A stretch of 64,000 nt of DNA from Caldifarciminota bacterium (GTDB lineage: Bacteria > Hydrothermota > Tepidihabitantia > Tepidihabitantales > Tepidihabitantaceae), in the NCBI GenBank assembly GCA_026418295.1, contig JAOABP010000007.1:1-64000 (forward strand), written 5' to 3'. Of this stretch, positions 29,482-64,000 are shown piece after piece. The notes below the pieces were generated by a model. The model worked only from the letters and a program-made list of their open reading frames with translations. It made no database searches and was not told the origin of the DNA. Position 1 is the stretch's first letter. The number at the start of each line of letters is the position of its first letter. The translations under genes and the position numbers were made by a program.

Positions 29482-29499
29482 TTAACCAAAGGAGATTTT

Positions 29500-30036: not shown

Positions 30037-30068
30037 TGAAGGGAGTCAGCATGGGCAGGTGTTTGTCC

Positions 30069-30097
30069 TTGACAGGAGAGAAGAAGATTTCTATAAT
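30069..30097 (+). promoter_or_regulatory. Perfect consensus promoter overlapping a pseudopilin start, leaderless
   Basis: TTGACA (30069-30074), 17 bp and TATAAT (30092-30097). The -10 overlaps the ATG at 30096 and the predicted first base (30104) is adjacent to an in-frame GTG at 30105. This argues that the GTG, not the ATG, is used on this transcript. Confidence 0.6.
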
Positions 30098-30104
30098 GAA
30101 GTTT

Positions 30105-30647: not shown

Positions 30648-30648
30648 T

Positions 30649-31449: not shown

Positions 31450-31457
31450 GGTGGAAG

Positions 31458-32588: not shown

Positions 32589-32611
32589 TTTTCTGGACAT
32601 AAGGAGGCAAA

Positions 32612-34216: not shown

Positions 34217-34220
34217 GCAT

Positions 34221-35350: not shown

Positions 35351-35387
35351 AAGCAAATGTTTGGGTTTTAAAAAAGAAAGGAGCACC

Positions 35388-35843
35388 TTGAGACAGAGAT
35401 TACTGGTAATTTTGGGTTTGGCAGTAGCGGTGCTGGCGATATTTACCTTTACCCGTTCGCGACCGCAGGTGATGCCGCAGGTAATTACCGATGCGGCTAC
35501 TACCGAGGTGACCCAGACGGTCAGAGGTAAGGCTGGGCAGTTAAAGTCAGCCCTGCAGGAAGCAATAGCACCGCCTGCACAAGGAGAAACACAGTCGGCT
35601 GTTGCGGAGCCGATTGTCTGGGGGAGCGATCCCTTTGTCCGTGACTGGATGCTGATGAGTGAGGTTGCCAATCTGAATCTGCGGGCGATCACAGTTACCA
35701 GTAGCGGGGCAAGTGCGCTGATAAATGATCAAATCGTTCAGGTTGGCGATCAGATCAGCGGTAAACGGGTCGTGAGCATTGAGCAGGACCGGGTAACTCT
35801 GGAACAGGGTGGAAGGACATTTACTTTGACACTGGGGGAGTAA
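35388..35843 (+). CDS. Second PilP/GspC-like pilus protein
   Basis: The 151-residue protein begins at a TTG with AAAGGAG 4 nt upstream. It has a membrane anchor (about 5-22), a linker and a C-terminal HR/PilP-like domain: SEVANLNLRAITVTSSGASALINDQIVQVGDQISGKRVVSIEQDRVTLEQGGRTFTLTL. This domain parallels that of the preceding gene, so the pair looks like an old duplication. It directly precedes the secretin gene, as pilP does in standard operons, and is the better PilP candidate. Confidence 0.68.
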   Translation: MRQRLLVILGLAVAVLAIFTFTRSRPQVMPQVITDAATTEVTQTVRGKAGQLKSALQEAIAPPAQGETQSAVAEPIVWGSDPFVRDWMLMSEVANLNLRAITVTSSGASALINDQIVQVGDQISGKRVVSIEQDRVTLEQGGRTFTLTLGE

Positions 35844-35847
35844 AATC

Positions 35848-37443: not shown

Positions 37444-37449
37444 GGGGCA

Positions 37450-37488
37450 GGTGGTCCTTTAAATAAAGGGTGGAGAGTAGTGACCACC
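37450..37488 (+). other. Nested inverted repeats between pilQ and pilT
   Basis: GGTGGTC (37450-37456) can pair with GACCACC (37482-37488). Inside lies a CCTTT-AAAT-AAAGG hairpin (37456-37469). The structure ends 5 bp before the pilT ATG and encloses an alternative in-frame GTG, so it could limit or delay pilT translation relative to pilQ. There is no T-tract, so it is unlikely to be a terminator. Confidence 0.4.
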
Positions 37489-37493
37489 GGAAG

Positions 37494-38630
37494 ATGAATA
37501 TTGATGAGCTGCTGAGGTATGCAGCCAAATATGGTGCCTCAGATCTCCACATAACCGCCGGTAACCCGCCGATCATCCGGGTTAACGGCCGTTTGAAAAA
37601 AATTCCGGGACCGGCGCTGACCGCAGATGATGCGGAGGCGCTGGTCTATTCTATCCTTAACGATGAGCAGAAGCAGGCGGTAAGGAATAAGAAGGAAATC
37701 GATCTTTCTTACACCTGGGGCGCTGCCAGTCAACGGCTGGTACCGGAAGCGCTGACACTTGAATATACAACTCCGGAACGAGTTCGTGCCCGCGTGAATG
37801 TGTTTCTGGATTTGAACGGAATCGGTGCCGCTTTCCGGATAATTCCGGCAAAAATCAGGACATTGGAAGAACTGCCGGCACCACCATCAGTTGCGGAGCT
37901 GGCGCGATCACACTCCGGGCTTGTACTGGTGACCGGTCCGACCGGTTGTGGCAAATCCACTACGCTGGCGAGTATGATTGACCTGATAGATCAGGAACAG
38001 GCGGTTCGAATTATTACGATTGAGGATCCGATTGAGTATATCTTTCGTCCACGGAACTGTCTGATCAGTCAACGGGAGATCGATACCCATTCCCGGTCAT
38101 TCGCATCGGCGCTCCGTGCCTGCCTCCGCGAAGACCCGGATGTAATTCTGGTCGGGGAGATGCGGGATCTGGAAACGATCAGTCTGGCATTGACCGCCGC
38201 GGAAACCGGCCATCTCGTGCTTTCGACCCTGCATACTAAAAGTGTTGCGGAGACCGTGGACCGGGTAATTGATGTCTTCCCGGCAGATCAGCAGGAGTAT
38301 GTCCGCCAGATATTTGCCAGTGTCATCCGCGGTATTATTTCCCAGACACTATTGCCGCGCAAGGATGGACGGGGACGGGTCGCAGCAATGGAGGTGCTGA
38401 TTGCAACGCCGGCGATCAAGAATTTGATCCGGGAGGCAAAGGTCCATCAGATACCCTCGTTGGTACAGACCGGTTCACAGTACGGGATGCAGACCATGGA
38501 TCAGAGTCTGGAGTTACTGCTGAAGAAAGGGTTGATTTCTCCGGAAGTGGCTTATGCGGCGGCAAACGATAAAAAGATGTTTTCGCCACCGGAGTCACCG
38601 GTTTCCCCCCCGGGACCCAAGGGACAGTGA
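37494..38630 (+). CDS. pilT: Type IV pilus retraction ATPase PilT
   Basis: The 378-residue hexameric ATPase begins MNIDELLRYAAKYGASDLHITAGNPP, the usual PilT start, which is why 37494 is preferred over a GTG 24 bp earlier. Walker A is GPTGCGKSTT, the Asp box IITIEDPIEYIF, Walker B RACLREDPDVILVGEMRDLETI and the His box GHLVLSTLHTKS. An insertion of about 20 residues (GAASQRLVPEALTLEYTTPERVR) lies in the N-terminal PAS-like domain. It powers pilus retraction. The extension motor PilB and platform PilC are not in this window. Confidence 0.94.
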   Translation: MNIDELLRYAAKYGASDLHITAGNPPIIRVNGRLKKIPGPALTADDAEALVYSILNDEQKQAVRNKKEIDLSYTWGAASQRLVPEALTLEYTTPERVRARVNVFLDLNGIGAAFRIIPAKIRTLEELPAPPSVAELARSHSGLVLVTGPTGCGKSTTLASMIDLIDQEQAVRIITIEDPIEYIFRPRNCLISQREIDTHSRSFASALRACLREDPDVILVGEMRDLETISLALTAAETGHLVLSTLHTKSVAETVDRVIDVFPADQQEYVRQIFASVIRGIISQTLLPRKDGRGRVAAMEVLIATPAIKNLIREAKVHQIPSLVQTGSQYGMQTMDQSLELLLKKGLISPEVAYAAANDKKMFSPPESPVSPPGPKGQ

Positions 38631-39424
38631 ACTGGGTTATTATCGGACTGCTGGGACTGATCCTGGGCAGTTTTTTCAATGTCTGTATCTGGCGTATCCC
38701 CCGCGGGCAATCAATCAGCTATCCGCCATCGCACTGTCCCCGCTGCAAGAAACGAATCCGGGCTTACGATAACATTCCGATTATCAGCTATCTGATATTA
38801 CGGGGCAGATGCCGGGACTGCCATCAGCCAATTTCGCTCCGGTATCCCCTGATTGAAGCTATTACCGCCCTGCTCTTTCTCCTCAGTTATTTCAGGTTCG
38901 GTTTTGACTGGCAGCTGGTGCGTGTGCTGGTTTTTATCAGTTTGCTTATTGTGCTTGCCGGCATTGATTTTGATCACAAGATCCTGCCGGTTGAGTTGTC
39001 ATTTGCCGGGTTAACCGTTGGACTGGTTACCGCTCTGATTCCGATGTTTCAGATGCCGATCAAAGAGGCGTTCTGGGGCGCAGTAATCGGAGCCGGCTTT
39101 GTTTTCTTTGCCTGGGCGTTGTGGCGGTTTGTGCTGGTCCGGCCATTTTCCCGCATGGGTGTAAAGCAGAAGGAGGCGATGGGCTGGGGTGATCTGCCGT
39201 TTGCCGCAATGATCGGAGTTTTTGTTGGGGGAAAGGGTATGATTGTGGCACTGGCGGTGGCGGTGGTTACCGGTGTGCTTTTTGGACTTGCGGGCAGGAT
39301 TGGCGGTCGGCTGAAGAAGGGTCAGGAGGTGCCGTTCGGACCGTTTCTGGCGCTGGGTGGTGTGGTTGGACTGTTCGCAGGCAGGGAGATTCTTGACTGG
39401 TATCTGAAGCTGGTGATGCCGTGA
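38627..39424 (+). CDS. pilD: Prepilin peptidase PilD (A24 family)
   Basis: The 265-residue membrane aspartyl protease has the N-terminal methylase-type domain with two CxxC pairs (HCPRCKK and RCRDCHQ) that bind zinc. The two catalytic Asp are in GIDFDHKILP and MGWGDLPFAA. It cuts the leaders of the five prepilin-like proteins encoded upstream and methylates the new N-termini. The GTG start overlaps pilT by 4 bp, closing the pil operon before the terminator at 39432. Confidence 0.94.
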   Translation: MNWVIIGLLGLILGSFFNVCIWRIPRGQSISYPPSHCPRCKKRIRAYDNIPIISYLILRGRCRDCHQPISLRYPLIEAITALLFLLSYFRFGFDWQLVRVLVFISLLIVLAGIDFDHKILPVELSFAGLTVGLVTALIPMFQMPIKEAFWGAVIGAGFVFFAWALWRFVLVRPFSRMGVKQKEAMGWGDLPFAAMIGVFVGGKGMIVALAVAVVTGVLFGLAGRIGGRLKKGQEVPFGPFLALGGVVGLFAGREILDWYLKLVMP

Positions 39425-45102: not shown

Positions 45103-48100
45103 ATGAGGCGTAATGTATTTGTGATAATATTATTCGGACTTTCAGCCGGTTATTTGTTTGGCGCCGGCTGGTCCGCCAGTTTTCAGTTCCGTCCCAATTC
45201 ATTTAGTGTGCAGACATTGGAACGGGATGGTCAGACTTTCACCATCATCAATCCTGAGCGAAACGCAGTGCCGGAGCATTCCAATCTGCAAATTGACTAT
45301 GTGCGGGAAACCGGTAAACCGATATTACCCTGCTGGAGTTTTATCCTTTTAATTCCGCAGGGAATGAAGGTGGGACAAGTACGGGTGACTGAGGATGGTG
45401 TAACCTCAATTAAGGCAGAATATCCCCCCTATCCCGCTCAGCCTCCAGTGCCGGTGTCTGCATCCGAACTCCCCCCCCTTGTTTTTCCTGAGCGCGAAAT
45501 TTACCAGGGAACTCAGCCCTGGCCTGGGGAGCGCTACTGGATAAGCCCGGTGGGCATCAAATCCGGGTTCCGGCTGGTTAATATCGTGATCTATCCGGTG
45601 CGGTATGATCCGGTTAACGGCAGTTATCTCATCAGTCAGAACTTGAGGGTGGAAATTGAATATGAACCGGACCCAACAGCAGAATTTGCCAGTCTGACCG
45701 GAAAGCAGCTCAAGTTGTTCAGTGCTGCAGTAAAGTCTATAGTCATCAACCCCGAGGATGTGAGCCGGTATGCACCACAGGAAAGATCTGCTGACTTTGG
45801 CACTTATGATTATGTCATTATTACCAATTCTACGCTTGAGCCCTATTTTCAGCCACTTCTAAACTGGCGCAGACGTCTCGGTTATTCCGGGATTATCCGG
45901 ACAACCAGCTGGATTAATTCCAATTATTCAGGTCGGGATCTGCCCGAGAAGATCCGGAACTTCATCCGTGATTATTTTAACAATTACGGCACGATGTGGG
46001 TGCTTTTAGGCGGCGATACCGCAGTCGTGCCAGCCCGGCGGGCACGGGCTACCTGTGCCGGAGAAATCGGAAACATTCCCTGCGACCTTTACTATGTGGA
46101 CCTGCAGTACTCCTGGGATTCGAACAATGACAACATCTTTGGTCAGTATGGGGTTGACACTACTGATTTATATTATGATCTCTATGTCGGCCGGGCAAGT
46201 GTTGATGACACCAATCAGGTCAAGACCTTTGTCAACAAGGTAATTACGCATGAGTCAAATCCGCCGACCGACTATCTGCGCCGGATACTTCTGGTGAGCG
46301 GTTATCTCTGGAGTGGTTATGATGAGACCCAGTCAAATGACTCGATTGCCAACATTACACCTTCCGGCTGGTCCGATGTTTATATTGAAAATCCGGGTAA
46401 TACCACTATGGTGCGGGATTCGCTGAACCACGGGTTTCAGTTCTGCCATATGGTCGGCCATGGAAATGATTACGGCATTTATCACAACTCCACCGCCTAT
46501 TACAGCACTTCGGTGATCTCCGGTCATAACAATGGTTCACGGGTCGGACTGATCAACTCGATCGCCTGCTATCCAGGGAACTTCGAATACAATGATTGTC
46601 TTGCTGAGGCTTCCCACAACTGCGCAACTGGTGGTGCCCTTTCGGTGATCATGAACTCGCGCTATGGCTGGGGCACGCCGCCGGTGCTCGGTCCTTCAGA
46701 GCAGCTGGATATCCGGTTTTATGACTATTTCTTCAATCATGATACGATGCCGATTGCTTTGACCCATGCTGAGTCCAAGGAGGTTTACCGCGGCTGGGCC
46801 AATGGCGGGGATGGTGCGTGGCGCTGGTGCTATTTTGAACTCAATTACTTCGGTGACCCGCTGCAGCTGATGTATGAAAATGTCCCGGCCCAGCTGAACG
46901 CAAGTTTCTCCAACCCGATTAATATCGGCATTCAGAATTTCACTGTTACAGTAACATCAGGATCTAATCCGGTATCGCAGGCACTGGTCTGTGTCTGGAA
47001 AGGCAGCGAGGTTTATGAACGTAACTATACGAATGCCTCCGGACAGGTTACATTTACCATCAATCCGACTACGTCTGGTTATATGTATGTCACCGCTTCT
47101 AAGCCCAACTATCTGCCCGACCTGGATTCCTGCCAGGTGGTTGCGTCCCGGCTTGATGTCGGCGTGAGCCGGATCATTACCCCATCGGGCACGGTTGATT
47201 ACGGCACAACGCTCAATCCTACTGCGGTGATCAGGAATTATCTTGCGGTGCCGGTTGCCAATGTGCCGATCCGGTTTACAATTGCTGGCGGGTATACCGC
47301 CAATGAGATTATCAGTCAGATTGGAGGCAATGACTCAGCGATAGTTCAGTTCACTCAATGGACCGCTGCACCTGCGGGCAATCTGGTGGTCAAATGTTCA
47401 ACCATGCTTGCCGGAGATACCTTCCCGAACAACGATTATCTGACCGGTTCGGTGTTTGTCCGCTACCGGGATGCGGGTGCAGTATCAATAACAATTCCGG
47501 CTACGGTGGATTCCGGTACGGTTGTCTATCCGGTCGCAACGGTCCGCAATTATGGAAATACGAATGAGACCTTTAATGTCCGGCTGGTGATTGCAGGCAC
47601 GAGCTACAATCAGACCCGGATGAAGACACTGGCTTCGGGTGCGATTGATACCGTAAATTTTCCGGCCTGGACTGCGCTGGAACGCGGGGGGCATACGGTC
47701 CGGTGTTCAACTCAGCTCAGTGGTGATAATAACCCTGGAAACGACCTGATAACCGCCAATACATTTGTCCGGGTGCGGGATGTGGGCTGCACTCAGATTA
47801 TTTCTCCGGTTGGCAATATCGATTCGGTGCCAACAATCCCCGTGCGGGCGAAGGTCAGAAACTTCGGCAATACGAGCGAGAGCTTTACGCTCAAATTCCG
47901 GATCAACGGTCCGGTGAACTGGAGCGATCAGGCATCGGTTAACAATCTGGCACCGGGAGATTCGGTGGTGGTTAATTTCAATGACTGGGCCTGTGGACCC
48001 CGTGGTTCCTATGCTACTGTTTGTTCTACGGAGTTCAGTGGTGATATGCGGCCGGGTAATGACCGCACGACTGGCAGTTTCAGTATCAACATTCATGATC

Positions 48101-50574
48101 TGGCGGTCCAAGGAATTAACAATCCGGGTGCCCAAGTTGATTCCGGGGCGCTGGTACCGGTGCAGGTGGTAGTTGCCAATCTGGGGTCGGTTCAGGAGAA
48201 TGCCAAGGTGTATGTACGCATCGGCAGTTACTACCGGGATTCGGCACAGGTACTGCTGAACAGTGGTGCCGTGGAGCAGGTAGATCTTCCTTCCTGGCGG
48301 GTGAATGCCCCACGCGGTCCTGTGACAGTATTGTGTTCAACTTATGTCTACAACGACATTAATCGGGCAAATGATACGCTAAGTCTTAGAACGACGGTGG
48401 TGGTGCATGATGTCGGGACGGTTGCGATTGTGACACCTGCCGGGACGGTCGACTCCGGCAGTGTTATTCTCCCCCGTGCCCGGATCAGAAACTACAGTTC
48501 TGTGCCCGAGAACTTCAGCTGCCGGTTTACAATTTCTGACGGTTATATTGCCCAGATTACAGTTAATCTGCCTGCGAGTGCCGAATCGGTGATCACCTTC
48601 CCGGCATGGCATGCAAATACACCGGGAAGTTTTGCTACCCGCTGTTCCACTATCCTCAGTTCAGATCAGAATCCGGGAAATAATCTGGCTACCGGTTCGG
48701 TTCAGGTGGTAGGGACCGATGTTGGCGTAGTGGCGATTGTAGCGCCAGTCGGACAGGTAGACCCTGGTCCGGTAACCCCGATTATCCGAGTGGGGAACTT
48801 CTCCAGCGTCCCCAAGAGTTTCATGAGTTATCTCCGGCTCACCCGATTAGGAGATACGATTCCCGTATTTTCCGATTCTCTGCTGGTCGCCAATCTGCCG
48901 ATGGATTCGGTCCGCGATGTTACTTTTGGAACCTGGAACGCAACCGGAGGCAGGTATGTAGTGCGCTGTTCGGTGGGGCTCGGAGACCGGAATCCGGTGA
49001 ACGACACTCTGAGTGGGTTCTGTCAGGTGGTGACTCATGATGTGGCAGTGGTTGCGCTGATACCTCAGGGCGAAATGCGTCCGATGACAGTGGCGCCGAT
49101 CGTGCGGGTGCGTAACCTGGGTGATGTAAGTGAAAACTGCCTTGTTCAGCTGACGGTCGTGGATACGGTCAGCGGCAATATCGCTTACGCCGACTCTGCG
49201 TCGGCAGAGGCACTGGCACCAGGTGAGGTCCGGGAGGTACGGTTGCCATCCTGGTCGGCAACAGTTGGTTATTACCGGTTGACCGGACTGGTGGTTGTGA
49301 ATGGTGACATCAACCCGGCGAATGATACATTTATTGCGAAACTGAAGGTTTCTCCGGGTGCAATCGGCTGGTTGCGCCGGCCTGATGTTCCAGCGGGCAG
49401 CGGTCCGGTGAAGGCGGGGGGCGCTCTGGCGGCGATTGAGACCGATTCGATGTTTGTATTTGCGCTTAAGGGCAATAAGACCAGGGAGTTCTATAAATAT
49501 GATGCCTCAATTGGGGTCTGGCGGACATTACCTCAGATACCCGCCGGTCCGTCCGGTAAGCCGGTGAACAAGGGGGGTGCGCTCTGTTCTGACGGTGAAC
49601 GGTATGTCTATGCCACCAAAGGCAACAACACGCTGGAGTTCTGGCGGTTTGATGTGCTGAGTAACACCTGGGAGCAGCTGCCCGATGTCCCGGCCGGTGC
49701 CAAGGAGCTCAAGGGTGGAACCGGGCTGGCGTTTGTCTCCAGAGGTGATACCGCGGAGGTCTATCTGCTGAAGGGTTCCAATACCCTTGAGTTCTACGTC
49801 TATTCGGTTACTGCCAATCAATGGTATCCACGGGCGCAGGCGCCGATCGGCGGGGCGGCCAAGAAGTTCAAGTCCGGTTCAGCGCTGTGTGCGCACGGAA
49901 ATGATCGGCTATTTGCGATCAAGTCCACAGTTAATGAGTTCTATGAGTATTCAATCGGGGAAGACCGCTGGATTCAGAGAGCCAGCGTACCCGACTACTC
50001 ATCTTCAGGCAAGCGATCGCGCTGCAAGGACGGTTGCGGACTGACGAGTGACGGGGTAAATACACTTTATGCACTCACCGGTGGCAATCGGGATTTCTTC
50101 TACTGCTATAATGTCGCCAATAACAGCTGGTTTGAGCTGGCACCGATGCCGCCCGGTCCGGCGGGCAAGCGGGTGAAGGCGGGAGGCGCAGTTACCTTCC
50201 TGCACAAACAGGTCTGGGCGCTGCGTGGTAACTCAACGAACGAGTTTTATGTCTATGTTCCGGACACAATGAGTCTGTTCCGCACCCCGCCGGTCCGTTC
50301 GGCTGCGGCCGGAGCCGGTCCGGTCCGGCCTGCGGTTGCCGGCGTTCGGGTTACACCCAATCCGGCGGACCGGGAGCTGTGGTTTGTCAATACCAGCCGG
50401 CTGCCGGCAACGGTGGAGCTGTTCTCAACTGCGGGGCAGATGGTGCTGGCGGTGAAAGTACCTGCGGGCGGGTGCTACCGGGTGGATGCAGCCGGGCTGC
50501 CTGCCGGGATCTACCTTGCCCGGTTTGTTGAGGATCAGAGGGGCCGCACTGGCAAGCTGATCATCCAGCACTGA
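45103..50574 (+). CDS. Giant secreted cysteine protease, C25 (gingipain) family, with CARDB repeats, Kelch-like repeats and sorting domain
   Basis: The 1823-residue protein has a signal peptide (about 1-21), a propeptide (about 25-215) and a C25 caspase-like peptidase domain (about 225-610). The catalytic His is in CHMVGHGND (near 452) and Cys in NSIACYPGNFE (near 488). Seven CARDB-type Ig repeats of about 100 residues follow (685-1416; each opens with a DVG/DAG-type strand and has VRNYG/VRNFG). Five or six Kelch-like repeats (about 1420-1740, KGNKTREFYKYD) precede a C-terminal PorSS-type sorting domain (VTPNPADRELW ... GIYLARF). It is secreted and probably surface-attached, digesting external protein. 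AAGGAGG precedes the ATG. Confidence 0.92.
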   Translation: MRRNVFVIILFGLSAGYLFGAGWSASFQFRPNSFSVQTLERDGQTFTIINPERNAVPEHSNLQIDYVRETGKPILPCWSFILLIPQGMKVGQVRVTEDGVTSIKAEYPPYPAQPPVPVSASELPPLVFPEREIYQGTQPWPGERYWISPVGIKSGFRLVNIVIYPVRYDPVNGSYLISQNLRVEIEYEPDPTAEFASLTGKQLKLFSAAVKSIVINPEDVSRYAPQERSADFGTYDYVIITNSTLEPYFQPLLNWRRRLGYSGIIRTTSWINSNYSGRDLPEKIRNFIRDYFNNYGTMWVLLGGDTAVVPARRARATCAGEIGNIPCDLYYVDLQYSWDSNNDNIFGQYGVDTTDLYYDLYVGRASVDDTNQVKTFVNKVITHESNPPTDYLRRILLVSGYLWSGYDETQSNDSIANITPSGWSDVYIENPGNTTMVRDSLNHGFQFCHMVGHGNDYGIYHNSTAYYSTSVISGHNNGSRVGLINSIACYPGNFEYNDCLAEASHNCATGGALSVIMNSRYGWGTPPVLGPSEQLDIRFYDYFFNHDTMPIALTHAESKEVYRGWANGGDGAWRWCYFELNYFGDPLQLMYENVPAQLNASFSNPINIGIQNFTVTVTSGSNPVSQALVCVWKGSEVYERNYTNASGQVTFTINPTTSGYMYVTASKPNYLPDLDSCQVVASRLDVGVSRIITPSGTVDYGTTLNPTAVIRNYLAVPVANVPIRFTIAGGYTANEIISQIGGNDSAIVQFTQWTAAPAGNLVVKCSTMLAGDTFPNNDYLTGSVFVRYRDAGAVSITIPATVDSGTVVYPVATVRNYGNTNETFNVRLVIAGTSYNQTRMKTLASGAIDTVNFPAWTALERGGHTVRCSTQLSGDNNPGNDLITANTFVRVRDVGCTQIISPVGNIDSVPTIPVRAKVRNFGNTSESFTLKFRINGPVNWSDQASVNNLAPGDSVVVNFNDWACGPRGSYATVCSTEFSGDMRPGNDRTTGSFSINIHDLAVQGINNPGAQVDSGALVPVQVVVANLGSVQENAKVYVRIGSYYRDSAQVLLNSGAVEQVDLPSWRVNAPRGPVTVLCSTYVYNDINRANDTLSLRTTVVVHDVGTVAIVTPAGTVDSGSVILPRARIRNYSSVPENFSCRFTISDGYIAQITVNLPASAESVITFPAWHANTPGSFATRCSTILSSDQNPGNNLATGSVQVVGTDVGVVAIVAPVGQVDPGPVTPIIRVGNFSSVPKSFMSYLRLTRLGDTIPVFSDSLLVANLPMDSVRDVTFGTWNATGGRYVVRCSVGLGDRNPVNDTLSGFCQVVTHDVAVVALIPQGEMRPMTVAPIVRVRNLGDVSENCLVQLTVVDTVSGNIAYADSASAEALAPGEVREVRLPSWSATVGYYRLTGLVVVNGDINPANDTFIAKLKVSPGAIGWLRRPDVPAGSGPVKAGGALAAIETDSMFVFALKGNKTREFYKYDASIGVWRTLPQIPAGPSGKPVNKGGALCSDGERYVYATKGNNTLEFWRFDVLSNTWEQLPDVPAGAKELKGGTGLAFVSRGDTAEVYLLKGSNTLEFYVYSVTANQWYPRAQAPIGGAAKKFKSGSALCAHGNDRLFAIKSTVNEFYEYSIGEDRWIQRASVPDYSSSGKRSRCKDGCGLTSDGVNTLYALTGGNRDFFYCYNVANNSWFELAPMPPGPAGKRVKAGGAVTFLHKQVWALRGNSTNEFYVYVPDTMSLFRTPPVRSAAAGAGPVRPAVAGVRVTPNPADRELWFVNTSRLPATVELFSTAGQMVLAVKVPAGGCYRVDAAGLPAGIYLARFVEDQRGRTGKLIIQH

Positions 50575-58018: not shown

Positions 58019-58046
58019 TTGACAGCGGATTTGAAATTTGTATTTT
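58019..58046 (+). promoter_or_regulatory. Promoter of the hydrogenase-like operon, nearly leaderless
   Basis: TTGACA (58019-58024), 16 bp and TATTTT (58041-58046) predict a start near 58053, two bases before an in-frame TTG at 58055. No Shine-Dalgarno is present. Confidence 0.6.
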
Positions 58047-58054
58047 TTATCCTC

Positions 58055-59068
58055 TTGGATACTTATTTTCTTGCTAACGATCAATGCGGTGCATGGTTAA
58101 GCCGGCTGGCTGGCCGGTTTAATCTTTTCTACCCCGCGCTGCTCGAGGAACGGGTTCACTGGCAGAAATATATTTCCGCCGATTTTCGACTGGAACAGCT
58201 GGCATTACGGCAGATCCGGGCAGCTGAGCCGATCAAGCCGTTTCTGTTTTCCCCACGGGAGCGGGTGGCATCTTTTCCCGAACCTCTAAATTCAGATGGA
58301 AAGGATATGCCAGCGCTGCTTTTCGGACTCAAGGGCTGTGACCTGCGGGGGATTGCGGTGCACAAGAAAATGTTTCTTGAGGGTGAATTTGCAGATCCGT
58401 TCTATGCCCGGCGGCTGGAGAATACCTATTTTATCGGTGCCGACTGTCCGGTTCCTGAGCCTTCCTGTTTCTGTAATCTGCTGGGTCTGAAACCTTTTTT
58501 CACTCAGGAGGTGGACCTGAGTCTTAGTGTGCTTGATGACGGCTGGCTGGTGGAGGTAATTTCGGAGCGGGGTCGGGAGTTGATCGACGGTAATTTTGTG
58601 CCGGCAAACGGTTCTCAGCTCAGTCAGCGTCAGGCACAGCGGGAGCGGGCGCTGGCAGTATTAAAACAGCAGAACCCGAAAGAGTGGAATCCGAATTTAG
58701 CACAGGCAATTGCGGAACGGACCAGAGACAGAAAATTCTGGGCTGATGCCGGCGCGGACTGTGTTGAGTGCTTTGGCTGTCTTGTAACCTGTCCGACCTG
58801 TTTCTGTTTTCTTCTTTACGACCAGGGAGATGCGGAGCGGTTTGAGCGGACAAAAGTCTGGGACTTCTGTTATATCCCGATGTATGCCCGGGTGGGTGGT
58901 GGTGCCAATCCGCGGCCGACGTTTGTTCAGCGGTTTATCAACCGGTTCCACTGCAAGTTTATGCACGCGAAGAATCAGAACGGGTTTTATGCCTGTTCCG
59001 GCTGCGGCCGGTGTTTCACCACCTGCATGGGCCGGATTGATATCCGCAAGATTCTGGGGCAGTTATGA
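58055..59068 (+). CDS. Iron-sulfur protein of the sulfhydrogenase beta (HydB)/sulfite reductase A type
   Basis: From the TTG at 58055 it has 337 residues. The N-terminal and middle part (LFGLKGCDLRGIAVHKKMFL, NTYFIGADCPVPEPSCFCNLLGL) is the HydB/AsrA-type domain. Two C-terminal ferredoxin-type clusters are ADCVECFGCLVTCPTC and YACSGCGRCFTTCMG, expected to hold [4Fe-4S] clusters. In group 3b hydrogenases and sulfite reductases this subunit carries electrons between the flavin gamma subunit and the catalytic core. The much longer frame upstream runs antisense through the DUF1893 gene and is rejected. The next gene overlaps by 4 bp. Confidence 0.8.
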   Translation: MDTYFLANDQCGAWLSRLAGRFNLFYPALLEERVHWQKYISADFRLEQLALRQIRAAEPIKPFLFSPRERVASFPEPLNSDGKDMPALLFGLKGCDLRGIAVHKKMFLEGEFADPFYARRLENTYFIGADCPVPEPSCFCNLLGLKPFFTQEVDLSLSVLDDGWLVEVISERGRELIDGNFVPANGSQLSQRQAQRERALAVLKQQNPKEWNPNLAQAIAERTRDRKFWADAGADCVECFGCLVTCPTCFCFLLYDQGDAERFERTKVWDFCYIPMYARVGGGANPRPTFVQRFINRFHCKFMHAKNQNGFYACSGCGRCFTTCMGRIDIRKILGQL

Positions 59069-59892
59069 GCGGTGCGGTCAAAAATCCCTATCAGCCGGTA
59101 AGGGCACAGATACTTAATGTAATTGAGGAAACTCCCAATATCCGGACCTTTGTTCTGAAACCGGAAGCAGAGATTCCCTTCCTTGCCGGGCAGTTTGTGG
59201 AGCTGACCATTCCCGGATTTGGCGAGGCACCATTTACTCCCTCATCGTCGCAATTTCACCGTGAAACATTGGAGATGACGATTATGCGCGTGGGCAGAGC
59301 AACCTCAGCACTTTTCACCAAAAAGCCCGGAGACTGGCTCGGAATCCGCGGTCCATACGGTAAGCCTTATCCGCTCAAGGATTTCGAGGGTCGAGATATT
59401 TATATTGTCGGGGGAGGTGTTGGTCTCGCACCGCTCCGGGCGCTGTTTCTGGCGCTGGTACACGAAATTAAGAAGTATGGCAAAATTTATCTCCGGTATG
59501 GTGCCCGTACGCCCAAGGACATCGTGTATAAACAACAGTTGAAGGAGTGGGAAAAGATTAAGGGTGTGGATATTGACCTTTCAGTTGACAGTGCGACCGA
59601 ACCATGGGAGCGCAAGGTTGGTGTGGTTACCTGCTTAATGGATGAGATTCCCTGTGATGTGAAAAAGAGTGTGGCGGTGGTATGTGGTCCCCCGATCATG
59701 ATGAAATTTGTAACCAAGAAACTGGTTGAAGCCGGTTTCCCCGGGAAAAATATCTATCTTTCAATGGAGATGAATATGTCCTGTGGTCTCGGACAGTGCG
59801 GTCACTGCCGGCTCGGACCGTATTTCACCTGCAAGGATGGTCCGGTATTGACCTGGGAGCAGATCAAAGATATTGAGGAGCCGTTCCTGTGA
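59065..59892 (+). CDS. FAD/NAD(P)-binding subunit, sulfhydrogenase gamma (HydG)/dihydroorotate dehydrogenase electron-transfer type
   Basis: The 275-residue protein has the ferredoxin-reductase-like FAD domain (about 8-100, LAGQFVELTIPGFGEAPFTPSSS, flavin-binding), an NAD(P) domain (YIVGGGVGLAPLRALF; VVCGPPIMMKF) and a C-terminal [2Fe-2S] Cys cluster (MNMSCGLGQCGHCRLGPYFTCKDGPV). This is the plan of HydG and PyrK-type subunits, the NAD(P)H diaphorase of group 3b hydrogenases. It should exchange electrons between NAD(P)H and the HydB-like protein upstream. It overlaps both neighbours by 4 bp. Confidence 0.88.
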   Translation: MSGAVKNPYQPVRAQILNVIEETPNIRTFVLKPEAEIPFLAGQFVELTIPGFGEAPFTPSSSQFHRETLEMTIMRVGRATSALFTKKPGDWLGIRGPYGKPYPLKDFEGRDIYIVGGGVGLAPLRALFLALVHEIKKYGKIYLRYGARTPKDIVYKQQLKEWEKIKGVDIDLSVDSATEPWERKVGVVTCLMDEIPCDVKKSVAVVCGPPIMMKFVTKKLVEAGFPGKNIYLSMEMNMSCGLGQCGHCRLGPYFTCKDGPVLTWEQIKDIEEPFL

Positions 59893-61484
59893 GTTCGATC
59901 CGCAAGACGGTCTGCGATTTCTGCCTTAACGGTTGCAACCTCGGGGTCAGTTTTGATGGCTATCAGTACAGAGTTGAGTATTTAACCGGAGAGGCACCGA
60001 ATTTTGGCCGGCTGTGCCCGCGCGGCAACAGCGCCAGCATTGTAATTGACCATCCCAAACGGCTCTGCTATCCGTTGCTCGATGGGAAGGAAATTAGCTG
60101 GCAGCAGGCGATGGAACTGATTGGCAAATGGCGCCAATCCTGCCGAAGCGATGAAATTGCTGTGGTTTACAGCCGTGGTCTGACCGAGGAAGAACTGGGT
60201 ATTGTTGCCGATTTTGCCCGAGAGATCGGCACCGGGAATCTGATCTGCGGTTATCTTGAGCCCGACCGGTATCTGGGCTATAGACTGGAAGGAGTCAGAA
60301 GTGCAAATCTGGATGATGTGTCAAATTCCCGGGCGATTCTACTGGTTGGGGATGTGTTTGGTGTTTCTCCAGTGGCTGCCGGTTTCATCCTGAATGCACG
60401 ATATGCTGACAGGACCAGCCGGCTTGTGGTGATTGATTCAATCCGGACTAAGCAGGCAGGTTTTGCCCATCTGTTCATTCAGGTGCGTCCGGGAACTGAG
60501 TATCGGGCTCTGGCAGCAGTCGCGGGTATTCTTGACCCGAAATTGAAGCTGGATGTGGACCGGCTTGCAGCAGAGTGCGGTGTTGATCGGCTGCTGCTGG
60601 AGGAGGCAGCAGCGATTATGAAATCGGCACCTAATGGTCTGGTAGGTGCAGCAGCCAGCTTCGGCCGGGTCAGTAACCCGCTGCTGCACAGCCTCTGCGC
60701 CCAGCTGGTGGCACTTAAAGCGGATAAGCCTTTTGCCGGTTTTGCCGAGGCGTTTGTTCCTGAGGGGAAAGTCAGTTTCGGGCAGTTCTACCAGCAGATC
60801 GCACAGGGAAAAATCCGGCTGGTTTTCTGGTTTGGTGGGCTTTATCCTTACAGTTATCCTGAGGTGCTGCCCGAGTTGAGCAAAATTCAGTTCCGGGTGG
60901 CGACCAGCATATTCCGGTTTAATTACGTCCTTCCCGGGCTTTTACTACCGGTGCCAAGTGAGTTTGAAAAGGCAGGACAGGGGGGAACTCTGTGGCGCCG
61001 GGTGGTCCGGGAGCCGGTTGCCAATCCGGTGAGCGGTTCAAGGACCATTGCGGAAATCTGTGCGGCGATCGCGGGCAGAATTGGTGCCGGGTCAACAGGT
61101 GAAACTCTCCGTTTCAGCTTGGAGCGAATACTTGAACTGCTCGCGGCTGACCGGAAGCAAGCAGAATCTGATGGTTATCAACTCATTGGCGAACGCCTGG
61201 CAATCGGGCTTGGTGAATTTTTCGACTCTGAGGAGGAAATTTTGCTCAATCCCGCTGATGCCCGGAAGCTGGAGGCAAAGGACGGCGACGTCGTAGTGGT
61301 GAAAAGTCAGACCGCAGAGCAGCGGTTTGGGGTCAAGGTTTCCATTGCAGTGCCGGCAGGAGTAGCAGCAGTTGGAGTAGACGCACACAAGAACCGGCGT
61401 CTGTTTTCTGTTAAATTTGACGACGCAACCGGTATTGCTACAATTCCCCCGGCAAAGGTTGAAATATGGCGGGTGCAGGAGTAG
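59889..61484 (+). CDS. NuoG/formate-dehydrogenase-like molybdopterin-oxidoreductase-family subunit, probably without Mo ligand
   Basis: The 531-residue protein starts with a [4Fe-4S] site (Cys9, Cys12, Cys16, Cys43; CDFCLNGC ... RLCPRGN). A molybdopterin-oxidoreductase fold follows (EISWQQAMELIGKW; SRAILLVGDVFGVSPV; RLVVIDSIRTKQAGFAHLFIQVRPGTEYRALAAVAG) and a C-terminal molydop-binding barrel (ILLNPADARKLEAKDGDVVVVKS). It is shorter than formate dehydrogenases (about 700+). I see no Cys/Sec in the right context for metal ligation, so like NuoG it may be only an electron-carrying scaffold. It overlaps the gene before by 4 bp and the one after by 19 bp. Confidence 0.72.
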   Translation: MSSIRKTVCDFCLNGCNLGVSFDGYQYRVEYLTGEAPNFGRLCPRGNSASIVIDHPKRLCYPLLDGKEISWQQAMELIGKWRQSCRSDEIAVVYSRGLTEEELGIVADFAREIGTGNLICGYLEPDRYLGYRLEGVRSANLDDVSNSRAILLVGDVFGVSPVAAGFILNARYADRTSRLVVIDSIRTKQAGFAHLFIQVRPGTEYRALAAVAGILDPKLKLDVDRLAAECGVDRLLLEEAAAIMKSAPNGLVGAAASFGRVSNPLLHSLCAQLVALKADKPFAGFAEAFVPEGKVSFGQFYQQIAQGKIRLVFWFGGLYPYSYPEVLPELSKIQFRVATSIFRFNYVLPGLLLPVPSEFEKAGQGGTLWRRVVREPVANPVSGSRTIAEICAAIAGRIGAGSTGETLRFSLERILELLAADRKQAESDGYQLIGERLAIGLGEFFDSEEEILLNPADARKLEAKDGDVVVVKSQTAEQRFGVKVSIAVPAGVAAVGVDAHKNRRLFSVKFDDATGIATIPPAKVEIWRVQE

Positions 61485-61960
61485 AAACTCAGAACTCCAA
61501 GCGGCTTTTTGTCCGGCTTGACTGGTGCATTGGCTGCCGGTCGTGTGAGGCAGCCTGCCGGAGCCGTTTCAAGGGTGAAGCCCGGATCCGTTATGCCGAA
61601 ATCAGCGAGACCGCCTTGGTCCCCATGCCCTGCCGTCACTGTGCAGAACCGCTCTGTGCTGCTGCCTGCCCATTTGAGGTGATTAAAAAGGATGAGGAGC
61701 GGGGAATTGTTTATCAGTCGAGTGTTCACTGTGTCGGCTGTCGTTCCTGTATCCTCGCATGTCCTTTCGGAGTTCTGGACAAGGAGCTCCTGCGCCGGAT
61801 CGCCCAGAAATGCAGTCTGTGTCAGGATCGGGATGAGGGTCCACGGTGTGCTGCATCCTGTCCAACTGGTGCCCTACAGTTCGTGACCGAGGCGGAAATC
61901 AAGGAACAGCAGGTAGGTAAGCGTACCAGTGCCCGGCTGCCGTTCTGGAGGCGGGTATGA
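61466..61960 (+). CDS. Four-cluster ferredoxin-type protein (HycB/HydN-like)
   Basis: The 164-residue protein has four Cys motifs for [4Fe-4S] clusters: WCIGCRSCEAACR, MPCRHCAEPLCAAACPF, HCVGCRSCILACPF and KCSLCQDRDEGPRCAASCPTGAL. This is the DMSO-reductase chain B/HycB/HydN plan. It would wire the NuoG/Fdh-like subunit to the hydrogenase small subunit. Its start lies within the end of the previous gene and its stop overlaps the next start, so translation is coupled. Confidence 0.9.
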   Translation: MAGAGVETQNSKRLFVRLDWCIGCRSCEAACRSRFKGEARIRYAEISETALVPMPCRHCAEPLCAAACPFEVIKKDEERGIVYQSSVHCVGCRSCILACPFGVLDKELLRRIAQKCSLCQDRDEGPRCAASCPTGALQFVTEAEIKEQQVGKRTSARLPFWRRV

Positions 61961-62913
61961 GTACCTGGTTTAGCGGCTGGCGACTGGTTGTCGGATTTCT
62001 GGTAACGGTGATCGGGGTGCCAATTGTGGGGCTGGTGCTTACGTGGGTAGATCGGTTCGTTTCTGCCCGCGTGCAGTGGCGCAAGGGTCCCCCGTTCTAC
62101 CAGCCATTTGCTGACATCCTGAAACTACTTTTGAAACAGACAATAGTGCCGCGGGGGGCGGCGCGAACAACATTTCTTTTTGCCCCGGTCGTCGGCATTG
62201 CGGGAATGACACTGGTGGCAATGCTGATTATTTACAGTAACTTTAATACAGTTGTCAATCAGCAGAGTTCATTCATTGGTGATATTATCGTTTTGCTTTA
62301 CTGTTTTGCGCTGGTCCCGATTTCCTTTATTATCGGCGCGTCGGCATCAGGAAATCCGGTGGCAGCGGTTGGCGCCTCCCGGGAGATGACCCTTTATCTG
62401 GGTTATGAACTGCCGTTTGTCCTGGCGATTCTGATTCCCGTGGTAAAGGTGGCACAGCAGTGGGGCGTTGCCAGCGCACTCCGGATCGGCGGTCTCGTCG
62501 CCTATCAGCAGCAGTTCGGACCACTGCTTTACTCGATTTCAGGGGTGATTGCAGCAGTGATTGTGCTCTTCACTATTCAGGCAAAGCTGGGTTATGTGCC
62601 CTTTGATATTCCGGAGGCGGAGCAGGAGATTATGTCGGGTGTGATTGTCGAGTATTCCGGTGCCCCGTTGGCGCTGTTCCGGATTGCCCGGGCGATGGCA
62701 TTTGTGCTCCTGCCGCTGTTTCTGATTACTCTGCTTTGGGGCGGATTGCGAGACTGGTGGGCTTTGCTGAAATTTCTGTTAATTGTGGTTCTGATTGTCC
62801 TGATGAAAAATACCAACCCGCGGTTGACCATTCATCAGGCCTTGAGATTCTTCTGGTTTATTCTGGCACCGATCGGGATAATCGGACTGGTACTGGCATT
62901 TATCGGATTATGA
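61957..62913 (+). CDS. Membrane subunit of a group 4 [NiFe] hydrogenase (NuoH/EchB/HycD-like)
   Basis: The 318-residue protein has eight predicted membrane helices. Conserved complex I subunit 1 motifs are VQWRKGPPFYQPFADILKLLLKQ, ASREMTLYLGYELPF and PFDIPEAEQEIMSGVIVEYSGAPLALFRIA, with the Glu-rich loop that couples the redox module to proton or sodium pumping. It anchors the soluble arm to the membrane. Antiporter-type subunits are not in the visible part of the operon. It overlaps both neighbours by 4 bp. Confidence 0.93.
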   Translation: MSTWFSGWRLVVGFLVTVIGVPIVGLVLTWVDRFVSARVQWRKGPPFYQPFADILKLLLKQTIVPRGAARTTFLFAPVVGIAGMTLVAMLIIYSNFNTVVNQQSSFIGDIIVLLYCFALVPISFIIGASASGNPVAAVGASREMTLYLGYELPFVLAILIPVVKVAQQWGVASALRIGGLVAYQQQFGPLLYSISGVIAAVIVLFTIQAKLGYVPFDIPEAEQEIMSGVIVEYSGAPLALFRIARAMAFVLLPLFLITLLWGGLRDWWALLKFLLIVVLIVLMKNTNPRLTIHQALRFFWFILAPIGIIGLVLAFIGL

Positions 62914-63326
62914 AGGATTTAAGGCTCTGGGGACTTAAGAAGTCGCCGTGGGTTTACCATGTAGCGGCAGCATCCTGTAATAACTGTGATATTGAGATTC
63001 TGGAACTTCTCACTCCTCGCTATGATGTGGAGCGGTTTGGAGTCGTGCTGGTTGGCTCTCCGCGGCATGCGGATGCCCTGCTGGTGACCGGGGTAATCAA
63101 TCGCAAATCGCTGCCGCGGGTGCTTGAGGTTTATGAGCAGACACCGAAACCCTGTCTGGTGATTGCGATTGGCACCTGTGCCTGTAATAATCACATCTTC
63201 CGGAACTCCTACAATGCGGTCGGTCCCTATGACAAGCACATTCCGGTCCACGCCTATATTCCCGGCTGTCCCCCTAAGCCTGAGGCAATGATTTTAGGTA
63301 TCGTCAAGGCGCTGAGCAAATTATGA
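62910..63326 (+). CDS. Hydrogenase small subunit (NuoB/EchC/HycG-like)
   Basis: The 138-residue protein carries the proximal [4Fe-4S] cluster ligands: ASCNNCDIEILELLTPRYD (two Cys), AIGTCACNN and YIPGCPPKPEAMILGIVKAL. It takes electrons from the ferredoxin-type subunits to the active site in the large subunit. The ATG at 62910 overlaps the NuoH-like stop; an upstream frame of the same phase is antisense-like noise. Confidence 0.93.
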   Translation: MKDLRLWGLKKSPWVYHVAAASCNNCDIEILELLTPRYDVERFGVVLVGSPRHADALLVTGVINRKSLPRVLEVYEQTPKPCLVIAIGTCACNNHIFRNSYNAVGPYDKHIPVHAYIPGCPPKPEAMILGIVKALSKL

Positions 63327-63775
63327 GCAGTTCACTCCAGCTTCTCCGTGAGCGTTTTCCTCAGATTGAGGTGATGGAAAAGAATCCGCGCCGGCTATAC
63401 ATCCGGATTCCGCGCGAGCAGCTGACGGCAACGGCACGGTTTCTCCATGAGGAACGGGGAATGCGGCTGTCCATCTGCACCGGTATCGATACCCGGGAGG
63501 GGTTTGAGGTTCTTTACCATTTTTCCGAGGATTCCACCGGAATAATTTATACACTCAAGGTTCTGGTTCCCAAGGATGATCCGAAGGTGGAGTCGCTAGG
63601 CAGCTGGTTTCCGGCAGCACAGTGGATTGAGCGGGAGATGCATGAGCTGCTGGGCATTGATTTCGTCGGCCATCCGAATCTGATTCCCCTGCTGACTTCA
63701 GATACCGACTGGGAACCGGATCGTCGCCCCCTGCGCCGGGATTATGAACGGAGGAACGAAGCCCATGAGCGATGA
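63323..63775 (+). CDS. NuoC/EchD-like 30-kDa subunit
   Basis: The 150-residue protein has the NuoC fold signature VESLGSWFPAAQWIEREMHELLGIDFVGHPNL near residues 92-123. The C-terminal PLLTSDTDWEPDRRPLRRDY is also typical. It packs against the small and large subunits in complex I-like hydrogenases. It overlaps the gene before by 4 bp and the large-subunit gene after by 11 bp. Confidence 0.92.
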   Translation: MSSSLQLLRERFPQIEVMEKNPRRLYIRIPREQLTATARFLHEERGMRLSICTGIDTREGFEVLYHFSEDSTGIIYTLKVLVPKDDPKVESLGSWFPAAQWIEREMHELLGIDFVGHPNLIPLLTSDTDWEPDRRPLRRDYERRNEAHER

Positions 63776-64000
63776 GACAAAGGTTAGACGGATAGTTCCG
63801 ATCGGTCCGTATCACCCGCTGCAGGAGGAGCCGGAATTCTTTAAGCTGGTTGTGGAGGGGGAAACGGTTGTTGATCTGGAGATCAATCTGGGTTATAACC
63901 ATCGCGGGCATGAATTTATTTCTCCAGAGTTGACCTACGATCAGGTGCCGTTTCTGGTGGAGCGTATCTGTGGTATCTGTTCCAATTCCCATCCGCTGGC
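63765..64000 (+). CDS. [NiFe] hydrogenase large subunit (NuoD/EchE/HycE-like), N-terminal part
   Basis: The gene runs off the right edge. The visible 78 residues include VPIGPYHPLQEEPEFFKLVVEG, LEINLGYNHRGHEF and RICGICSNSHPL. The last is the L1 motif, whose two Cys bind the nickel-iron centre, so this is a true hydrogenase-type large subunit rather than a NuoD (which lacks the Cys). The C-terminal L2 motif with the other two Cys lies outside the window and must be checked. The start is the ATG at 63765, overlapping the previous gene. Confidence 0.92.
   Translation, partial: MSDETKVRRIVPIGPYHPLQEEPEFFKLVVEGETVVDLEINLGYNHRGHEFISPELTYDQVPFLVERICGICSNSHPL

What the first reader, a model, noticed from the sequence alone, without database searches (positions are those of the whole stretch)
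58019..64000. Mosaic hydrogenase operon: group 3b-type NAD(P)H diaphorase modules joined to a group 4-type membrane core
Eight overlapping genes encode HydB-like and HydG-like subunits, a NuoG/Fdh-like subunit, a HycB-like ferredoxin, and NuoH, NuoB, NuoC and a NiFe large subunit with an intact RICGIC motif. HydB/HydG normally belong to soluble group 3b hydrogenases or sulfite reductases; the rest to membrane group 4 enzymes. Together they suggest a membrane complex coupling NAD(P)H (or bifurcation) to hydrogen and ion translocation. This combination may represent an undescribed complex type.
Basis: partly seen in the sequence, partly recalled or inferred. Interest (0 to 1): 0.75.

Follow-up and report, generated by a model that had tools for sequence, protein, structure and literature searches.

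The report
NAD(P)H-linked membrane hydrogenase operon
A widespread bacterial enzyme complex, so far known only from genomes, seems to join the cell's NAD(P)H pool to hydrogen gas through an ion-moving membrane machine, with a worn-out formate dehydrogenase reused as an electron wire in part of the family.

Summary
The mosaic is real. The window holds seven genes and the start of the eighth of an 18-gene operon. The contig beyond 64000 supplies the rest: the large subunit with an intact second nickel-iron motif (DPCYCC), Mrp-type antiporter genes with an extra NuoN-like subunit, and a NuoI-like ferredoxin. Genes 1 and 2 match the beta and gamma subunits of Pyrococcus sulfhydrogenase. Gene 3 has the formate-dehydrogenase fold but has lost metal ligand and pterin motifs, so it is probably an electron conduit. 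No other NiFe hydrogenase, FeFe hydrogenase or complex I large subunit was found in this 96.7% complete genome. Large subunits of this type form one supported clade, found in 75 of 147 genomes of the phylum and in MAGs labelled Omnitrophota, Endomicrobia, Planctomycetota and Clostridia. asrA and asrB accompany it in 50 of 53 loci with enough upstream sequence; two more distant group 4 hydrogenases lack them. Most likely it is a reversible NAD(P)H:H+ oxidoreductase coupled to H+/Na+ movement. The gene set was noted once (2019, Saganbacteria, called enigmatic); I found no biochemical study. Verdict: a real, uncharacterised variant of a known kind; donor, direction and ion are inferred.

The parts
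58019..59068 (+). Gene 1, AsrA/HydB-like [4Fe-4S] subunit (true start GTG 58019 or TTG 58055)
   Evidence: NCBIfam ShyB 1.9e-42, HydB 1.9e-40, AsrA 5.1e-27, all below their equivalog cut-offs; best PDB chain 9nez_B, sulfhydrogenase 1 beta, 7.6e-37 (query from 58070); of 16 Cys columns shared with that chain 14 are Cys in 91 of 91 rows, the others in 89 and 69
59065..59892 (+). Gene 2, AsrB/HydG-like FAD, NAD(P) and [2Fe-2S] subunit
   Evidence: Pfam NAD_binding_1, FAD_binding_6, DHODB_Fe-S_bind; best PDB chain 9nez_C, sulfhydrogenase 1 gamma, 9.3e-50; the five Cys shared with that chain are Cys in 97 of 97 rows
59889..61484 (+). Gene 3, FdhA/NuoG-like subunit without metal ligand or pterin-binding motifs (here FdhG*)
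   Evidence: Pfam Molydop_binding over its cut-off, Molybdopterin and Molybdop_Fe4S4 just under theirs; AlphaFold2 pLDDT 92.5; VIA-align Z 29.3 to a formate dehydrogenase, 28.6 to periplasmic nitrate reductase, 26.7 to Thermus NuoG (4hea_3), 26.0 to a chain of the Elp-Hdr complex (8rvu_D); no Cys at the ligand position in 41 of 41 aligned rows
61466..61960 (+). Gene 4, HycB/CooF-like polyferredoxin
   Evidence: Pfam Fer4_11 7e-19
61957..62913 (+). Gene 5, NuoH-like membrane subunit
   Evidence: Pfam NADHdh 1.5e-59
62910..63326 (+). Gene 6, NuoB-like small subunit
   Evidence: Pfam Oxidored_q6 6.9e-29
63323..63775 (+). Gene 7, NuoC-like subunit
   Evidence: Pfam Complex1_30kDa 2.1e-27
63765..64000 (+). 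Gene 8, [NiFe] hydrogenase large subunit, cut by the window end (continues to position 64955 of the contig)
   Evidence: RICGIC and DPCYCC both intact; best PDB chain Mbh 6cfw_L 2.4e-79, then FHL 7z0s_E 6e-75, then complex I 5.7e-59

Best explanation
The operon encodes one large membrane complex: a group 4 [NiFe] hydrogenase whose electron-input arm is an NAD(P)H diaphorase of the sulfhydrogenase/Asr type. Proposed path: NAD(P)H gives a hydride to FAD on AsrB; electrons pass through its [2Fe-2S] cluster to the [4Fe-4S] clusters of AsrA, through the [4Fe-4S] cluster of the pterin-less FdhG* (where present) and the HycB polyferredoxin (and the NuoI-like ferredoxin) to the NuoB cluster, and reduce H+ to H2 at the Ni-Fe site of the large subunit. 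The free-energy difference is exchanged with an H+/Na+ gradient through NuoH and the antiporter arm. The reaction should be reversible. At low H2 it would discard NAD(P)H as H2 with at most about one ion moved outward per H2; at higher H2 it would consume the ion gradient or run backwards as an uptake hydrogenase. Shown by sequence: gene content and order, conserved cofactor ligands, conservation over phyla, loss of FdhG* active-site motifs. Inferred: assembly into one complex, electron donor (NADPH or NADH), order of clusters, ion, direction.
For: Genes 1 and 2 best match sulfhydrogenase 1 beta and gamma in the PDB. In AsrB the PFT/FFT-PSS and GGGVGxAPLR motifs and five Cys are kept in 97 of 97 rows, and 14 of 16 shared Cys columns of AsrA in 91 of 91 (the roles of the two motifs are recalled; some genomes count twice). 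Large subunit: RICGIC and DPCYCC in 39 of 39 phylum loci, closest to Mbh and FHL. Linkage: among loci picked by the large subunit alone, asrA and asrB lie upstream on the same strand in 50 of 53 with at least 5.5 kb upstream; 25 of these 53 lie outside the phylum, 24 of them with asrA and asrB. In the phylum set picked by FdhG* it is 37 of 38, in a further set of clade members 9 of 10. The clade has support 100/99 against Mbh and other group 4 enzymes of the phylum. In G137 and G138, where the operon is broken up, AsrB at 62 and 63% identity is still present elsewhere. Control: two group 4 hydrogenases of 45 and 44% identity, in stretches of 19.5 kb, have no asrA or asrB match (L212 and L213). 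Own genome: one NiFe large subunit found, no FeFe hydrogenase found, HypD and a HycI-type protease present. Ion arm: MrpB, C, E and G follow the large subunit in 25 of 31, 34 of 41 and 5 of 6 loci of the three sets with at least 8.8 kb downstream (sets overlap).
Against: I found no biochemistry on it. NAD(P)H to H2 at standard potentials is uphill, so an ion-pumping forward reaction has little energy available. AsrA and AsrB score below every equivalog cut-off, so family does not fix their substrate. No gene fusion ties the diaphorase to the hydrogenase. Linkage exceptions: L048, L096 (same organism as L215), L106 and L130. L072 has asrA, asrB, FdhG* and hycB but no hydrogenase large subunit in the stretch or found in that 67% complete genome. 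The membrane arm is not constant: some loci (L051/L086, L063, L070) have only NuoL/NuoN-like genes and no MrpB-G nearby. HycB and NuoI ferredoxins leave room for direct ferredoxin input. The AsrAB-less control is two loci only.
Confidence: 0.6

Rival explanations
1. A ferredoxin-dependent Mbh-type hydrogenase in which AsrAB and FdhG* are a second gate: the enzyme takes electrons from ferredoxin and NAD(P)H together (confurcation) or shuttles between the two pools while H2 is made.
For: The closest solved large subunit is that of Mbh; Mbh hydrogenases make H2 from reduced ferredoxin (PMC6349859 passage); HycB and NuoI-like ferredoxins are present; the Saganbacteria cluster was proposed to work like Mbh; HydDB lists group 4g as putatively ferredoxin-coupled (PMC5037454).
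Against: asrA and asrB are kept almost everywhere in the clade, while AsrAB-less group 4 hydrogenases exist in some of the same genomes (G067, G094, G138), which would make a plain ferredoxin enzyme redundant there. The operon holds no second flavin gene that I recognised.
Confidence: 0.27
2. A sulfur or polysulfide reducing enzyme (sulfhydrogenase-like or Asr-like) with H2 or NAD(P)H as donor and S0 or sulfite as acceptor.
For: Genes 1 and 2 match sulfhydrogenase and AsrAB families.
Against: None of the operon genes scanned matches a siroheme subunit like AsrC; the large subunit keeps all Ni-Fe ligands.
Confidence: 0.05
3. A formate hydrogenlyase in which gene 3 is the formate dehydrogenase.
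For: Gene 3 has the formate dehydrogenase fold and a HycB-like partner.
Against: Cys ligand, GQNNVQG loop and C-terminal active-site motif are missing, while FdhA genes upstream in L147 and L153 have them; gene 3 is absent between asrB and hycB in 25 of 25 loci outside the phylum and in L200, L201 and L202.
Confidence: 0.03

Closest known systems
Mbh, ferredoxin-dependent Mrp-type membrane-bound hydrogenase of Pyrococcus furiosus (group 4d, PDB 6cfw)
   Same: NuoB/C/D/H/I-like core, intact Ni-Fe ligands, Mrp-type ion module with MbhD/E
   Different: Mbh has no AsrA/AsrB or FdhA-like subunit (recalled); here a NuoL-like antiporter and a NuoN-like subunit are added
Sulfhydrogenase 1 of Pyrococcus furiosus (group 3b, PDB 9nez)
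   Same: Beta and gamma subunits match genes 1 and 2
   Different: Soluble with group 3 catalytic subunits (recalled); here the catalytic part is group 4 with membrane subunits
Enigmatic group 4 hydrogenase region of Saganbacteria RX5A (PMC6349859, passages read)
   Same: Group 4 hydrogenase with Mrp subunits, molybdopterin protein, cooF, asrA, asrB; relatives said to be in Zixibacteria and Omnitrophica
   Different: Described from gene content only and proposed Mbh-like. I did not read its supplement or obtain its sequence, so the identity is by description
fdh2 cluster of Thermococcus onnurineus (abstract and passages of PMC8965080; group 4b recalled)
   Same: Formate dehydrogenase genes clustered with a membrane-bound hydrogenase and a cation/proton antiporter
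   Different: [quoted passage not shown] here the FdhA-like subunit lacks the active-site motifs and AsrAB is added
Pterin-less FdhA-like conduits: ElpA (PMC12350162, passages), StnC NuoG-like domain (PMC10482914, passages), NuoG of complex I
   Same: FdhA-like fold without catalysis next to a flavin subunit, carrying electrons
   Different: ElpA serves heterodisulfide reductase and lacks the pterin-binding domain; here most of the fold is kept and the partner is a hydrogenase

Membership tests
Group 4 [NiFe] hydrogenase | Large subunit with both CxxC motifs (L1, L2) | tested here: met
   RICGIC and DPCYCC in the window's operon and in 39 of 39 phylum loci; elsewhere in the clade small variants occur: RVCGIC in L147 and L153, DPCYSC in the partial L210
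Group 4 [NiFe] hydrogenase | Core of NuoB, C, D, H and I homologues | tested here: met
HydDB subgroup 4g | Falls in the HydDB 4g cluster | not testable with these tools
   No HydDB references at hand; Omnitrophota Mrp-linked hydrogenases were called 4g in PMC8542988, not shown to be the same genes
Group 4d Mbh | Large subunit groups with Mbh | tested here: inconclusive
   Clade of 33 rows separate from 6cfw_L with support 100/99, but one Mbh row on a long branch is a thin reference
Group 3b sulfhydrogenase | Beta and gamma subunits with flavin and Fe-S ligands | tested here: met
Group 3b sulfhydrogenase | Group 3 catalytic large subunit | tested here: not met
   Large subunit matches Mbh, FHL and complex I; sulfhydrogenase alpha only at 1.5e-12 and 3.2e-08
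Anaerobic sulfite reductase AsrABC | AsrA/AsrB equivalog scores and an AsrC beside them | tested here: not met
   AsrA 95 of 323 bits and AsrB 205 of 289 bits needed; no AsrC-like match among the operon genes scanned; the rest of the genome was not searched for one
Formate hydrogenlyase | Catalytic FdhA with Cys/Sec ligand and pterin motifs | tested here: not met
Respiratory complex I | NuoD without Ni-Fe ligands, with NuoE/NuoF | tested here: not met
   Ni-Fe ligands present; no NuoE/NuoF-like match among the operon genes scanned; no other PF00346 protein found in the genome
Mrp antiporter arm | MrpA(-like), B, C, D, E, F, G | tested here: met
   NuoL-like plus MbhD/E (taken as a split MrpA, recalled), MnhB, Oxidored_q2, Proton_antipo_M, MNHE, MnhG by Pfam; the 83-aa MrpF was not scanned and is named by position and size

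The most novel reading that the evidence does not exclude
There is a whole clade of ion-translocating [NiFe] hydrogenases whose direct redox partner is NAD(P)H rather than ferredoxin: in effect a complex I that makes or uses H2 in place of quinone. The asrAB linkage is seen in MAGs of four phyla (WOR-3, Omnitrophota, Elusimicrobiota, Bacillota by label; in Planctomycetota only the large subunit and its downstream genes are seen). In the window's WOR-3 genome it stands where complex I might be expected, and in much of WOR-3 a formate dehydrogenase has been turned into a NuoG-like wire.
Probability: 0.45. Interest if true: 0.75.

Novelty: new variant of a known kind. Interest (0 to 1): 0.56.

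Why it matters
Mrp-linked membrane hydrogenases of such phyla have been filed as putatively ferredoxin-coupled group 4g (PMC8542988; PMC5037454), and the core genes (NuoH, B, C, D-like) score best as NADH-quinone oxidoreductase subunits. If the input is NAD(P)H, energy budgets for WOR-3, Omnitrophota and others change: they could dispose of NAD(P)H as H2 under a partner's low H2, coupled to an ion gradient, without ferredoxin. [quoted passage not shown] in the window's genome the only 49-kDa homologue found is this hydrogenase, so part of that claim may rest on this operon (inference). It also offers a further case of a formate dehydrogenase reduced to an electron conduit, bearing on how NuoG arose.

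Tried and rejected
Formate hydrogenlyase reading: rejected on missing active-site motifs. A conserved Glu at the lost ligand position was considered as a replacement ligand: Glu in 35 of 41 rows, Glu-Pro in 32 of 41, counted by eye; absent in other rows, so not convincing. Five of the 41 rows have a Cys four residues further on; not conserved.

Idea that some lineages have a soluble, membrane-less version (L048, L055, L106): weakened, not excluded, by finding NuoH elsewhere in those genomes; their operons look dispersed.

Recent capture of AsrAB from a neighbouring soluble hydrogenase: in L092 an opposite-strand AsrB-like frame beside NuoD- and NuoB-like hits is 38% identical to the window's AsrB, against 64% for the operon copy; rejected for that locus only.

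Gene fusions joining diaphorase and hydrogenase: none found. HydDB classification could not be run. A search of Omnitrophota genomes as a phylum was not possible. NADH versus NADPH preference could not be read from the sequence; the ARxxKD stretch shared with sulfhydrogenase varies at its K over the clade.

Literature: open-licence papers only. Only PMC6349859 was found to describe the combination. Papers were read as passages found by term; no supplement and no whole text was read.

Row handling: the loci were picked by an FdhG* hit, so FdhG* in them is by construction; the loci were picked by the large subunit (80 of 215 kept by the tool); the two sets overlap in genomes and their counts are not added. 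Assignment of loci to 'outside the phylum' (43 of 80) was by me from record titles and matches. L055 and L072 have no large subunit in the stretch and are outside the linkage counts. One search dropped AsrA/AsrB frames of 240 aa or less. For one search, 11 rows of the tree were left out (three PDB outgroups, one duplicate, seven for size) and 12 added. Gene 1 was queried from 58070, inside the gene.
Full report
What is there. The window is bases 1 to 64000 of a 103,162-base contig of a 1.80 Mb genome, 96.7% complete. The reported stretch is the first part of an operon of 18 genes on the + strand, from window position 58019 (or 58055) to window-equivalent 72669. The order is asrA, asrB, an fdhA/nuoG-like gene (here FdhG*), hycB, nuoH, nuoB, nuoC, large subunit, nuoN-like, nuoL-like, mbhD/E, mrpB, C, D, E, F, G and a nuoI-like ferredoxin. 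Of 17 junctions 12 overlap by a few bases. A convergent rnf-like operon follows on the other strand, recognised by eye. The organism belongs to the WOR-3 group, judged from the titles of matching records.

The hydrogenase. The large subunit has ERICGIC and DPCYCC, the four nickel-iron cysteines. Its best solved match is Mbh of Pyrococcus furiosus (2.4e-79), then formate hydrogenlyase HycE (6e-75), then complex I. All 39 phylum loci with a large subunit in the stretch have both motifs. In the genome no other protein matching PF00346 or PF00374 was found and no FeFe hydrogenase; HypD and a HycI-type protease are present.

The input arm. Gene 1 best matches sulfhydrogenase 1 beta (7.6e-37) and gene 2 sulfhydrogenase 1 gamma (9.3e-50). 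Both score below the NCBIfam cut-offs, so they seem to form their own subfamily near HydB/HydG and AsrA/AsrB. Over 97 AsrB rows the five shared cysteines and two motifs taken as flavin and nucleotide sites are kept; over 91 AsrA rows 14 of 16 shared cysteine columns are invariant (some genomes count twice).

Gene 3. It has the full fold of a bis-pterin oxidoreductase (pLDDT 92.5; Foldseek; VIA-align Z 29.3 to a formate dehydrogenase, 28.6 to nitrate reductase, 26.7 to Thermus NuoG, 26.0 to a chain of the Elp-Hdr complex that I take to be ElpA). The four N-terminal cluster cysteines are invariant in 41 rows. The Cys/Sec ligand is absent in all 41 as aligned, and the pterin loop and the C-terminal active-site motif are missing in the rows compared with the FdhA of L147 and L153, which has them. 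It evolves fast: about 25 to 30% identity to the window in loci whose large subunit keeps about 70%. I read it as an electron conduit or scaffold. Published parallels are ElpA (PMC12350162, passages) and the StnC domain (PMC10482914, passages).

Spread and linkage. FdhG* at E 1e-30 or better occurs in 62 of 147 phylum genomes, large subunits of 57% identity or more in 75 of 147 (counted by me from its listing). The genome collection gave 215 relatives, of which the tool kept 80; they include MAGs labelled Omnitrophota, Planctomycetota/Brocadiaceae, Endomicrobia and Clostridia. In those 80, asrA and asrB lie upstream on the same strand in 50 of the 53 loci with at least 5.5 kb upstream; of the 25 among these that lie outside the phylum, 24 have both. 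In the phylum set picked by FdhG* it is 37 of 38 and in further clade members 9 of 10. Exceptions: L048 (asrAB about 7 kb beyond the hydrogenase genes on the same stretch), L096 and L215 (the same organism, rearranged), L106 (dispersed genes) and L130 (an AsrB fragment only). The two Planctomycetota-labelled loci are cut before asrAB, so linkage there is untested. FdhG* is absent between asrB and hycB in 25 of 25 loci outside the phylum and in L200, L201 and L202 of the phylum; in family f30 it is very divergent and has lost one cluster cysteine. In genomes with a broken-up operon the parts persist elsewhere.

Membrane arm. MrpB, C, E and G follow the large subunit in 25 of 31 loci of the first phylum set, 34 of 41 of the genome set and 5 of 6 of the second phylum set with at least 8.8 kb downstream (sets overlap). 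The others either end in runs of N (L052, L066 and probably their copies L095 and L104), are dispersed (L048, L106, L107), are rearranged (L096/L215), or have a simpler arm with NuoL/NuoN-like genes (L051/L086, L063, L070; L149 shows a NuoL-like and a NuoI-like gene only). So the kind of ion coupling may differ within the clade.

Tree. Large subunits of AsrAB-type operons form a clade with support 100/99 (33 rows; 98/99 for 32 rows). Mbh and other group 4 hydrogenases of the same phylum (L195, L212, L213, L214) fall outside. L212 and L213, in 19.5-kb stretches, have no asrA or asrB match. Outgroup branches are long and references few, so the deep order is unsure.

How it most likely works. NAD(P)H reduces FAD on AsrB; electrons run through AsrA, FdhG* where present, HycB and NuoI to NuoB and the Ni-Fe site; the membrane arm exchanges the small free-energy change with an H+/Na+ gradient. 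From textbook potentials (recalled), NADPH near -370 mV against H+/H2 near -300 to -270 mV at 1 to 10 Pa H2 gives room for about one ion per H2; at higher H2 the reaction must consume the gradient or run as H2 uptake. The adjacent rnf-like operon would connect ferredoxin with NADH, so both pools could end as H2. Shown: genes, motifs, linkage, clade. Inferred: one complex, donor, direction, ion.

Compared with what is known. Membership in group 4 is met. For group 3b, Asr, formate hydrogenlyase and complex I at least one defining feature was tested and not met; Mbh (4d) is inconclusive and HydDB 4g could not be tested (see Membership tests). The nearest published description is the Saganbacteria RX5A region, called enigmatic and supposed to act like Mbh (PMC6349859, passages). 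HydDB leaves group 4g as undetermined, putatively ferredoxin-coupled (PMC5037454, passages). A 2025 WOR-3 survey stresses MvhADG-HdrABC and reports complex I in nearly all genomes; the passages I read do not mention this operon (PMC12542636). Another paper notes that the WOR-3 lineage outside one cluster tends to have an NADP-reducing hydrogenase by pathway scoring (PMC12285271, passages). I found no biochemical study of it in the searches, which cover open-licence papers only.

Verdict. A real and well conserved modular complex, a new variant of group 4 hydrogenases with a probable NAD(P)H diaphorase as input. The finding makes a clear test possible: does AsrAB feed this hydrogenase.

Noticed in passing
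L003:15722-19998 (contig positions 72722-76998, beyond the window): A convergent rnf-like operon (RnfB, A, E, G, D, C-like frames, minus strand, recognised by eye) directly after the hydrogenase operon.
   Followed up: no
L147:564-3679 and L153:355-3467: Two loci (one labelled Clostridia) carry an FdhA with intact active-site motifs followed by a second AsrA-like gene a few kb upstream of the AsrAB-hydrogenase operon, suggesting that FdhA-AsrA pairing exists on its own.
   Followed up: partly
L162:6911-10504 (genome contig 8): A second AsrA/AsrB pair (31 and 40% identity) beside a ferredoxin-like frame and a short frame that looks MvhD-like by eye; no second NiFe large subunit was found in the genome.
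   Followed up: partly
L203-L206, gene 3: In family f30 the FdhG* homologue has lost the third cluster cysteine (CxxCxxxD) but keeps a GLPxHH..GE(I/V)(S/T)RR-like C-terminal stretch.
   Followed up: partly
L212, L213, L195: Several genomes of the phylum carry another group 4 hydrogenase (DPCICC) with antiporter genes and no AsrAB match, besides the AsrAB-type one.
   Followed up: partly
L072:12432-16157 and L066:16186-16662: L072 has asrA-asrB-FdhG*-hycB with no hydrogenase gene after it (67% complete genome); a HycI-like maturation protease frame (by eye) lies just upstream of asrA in L072 and L066.
   Followed up: partly
window 45103-50574: Very long secreted-looking protein (1823 aa) with repeated modules and a C-terminal sorting-like tail, possibly a C25-type peptidase by eye.
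   Followed up: no
window 29467-39424: A dense type IV pilus/type II secretion-like cluster with several pilin-like genes in a row, by eye.
   Followed up: no
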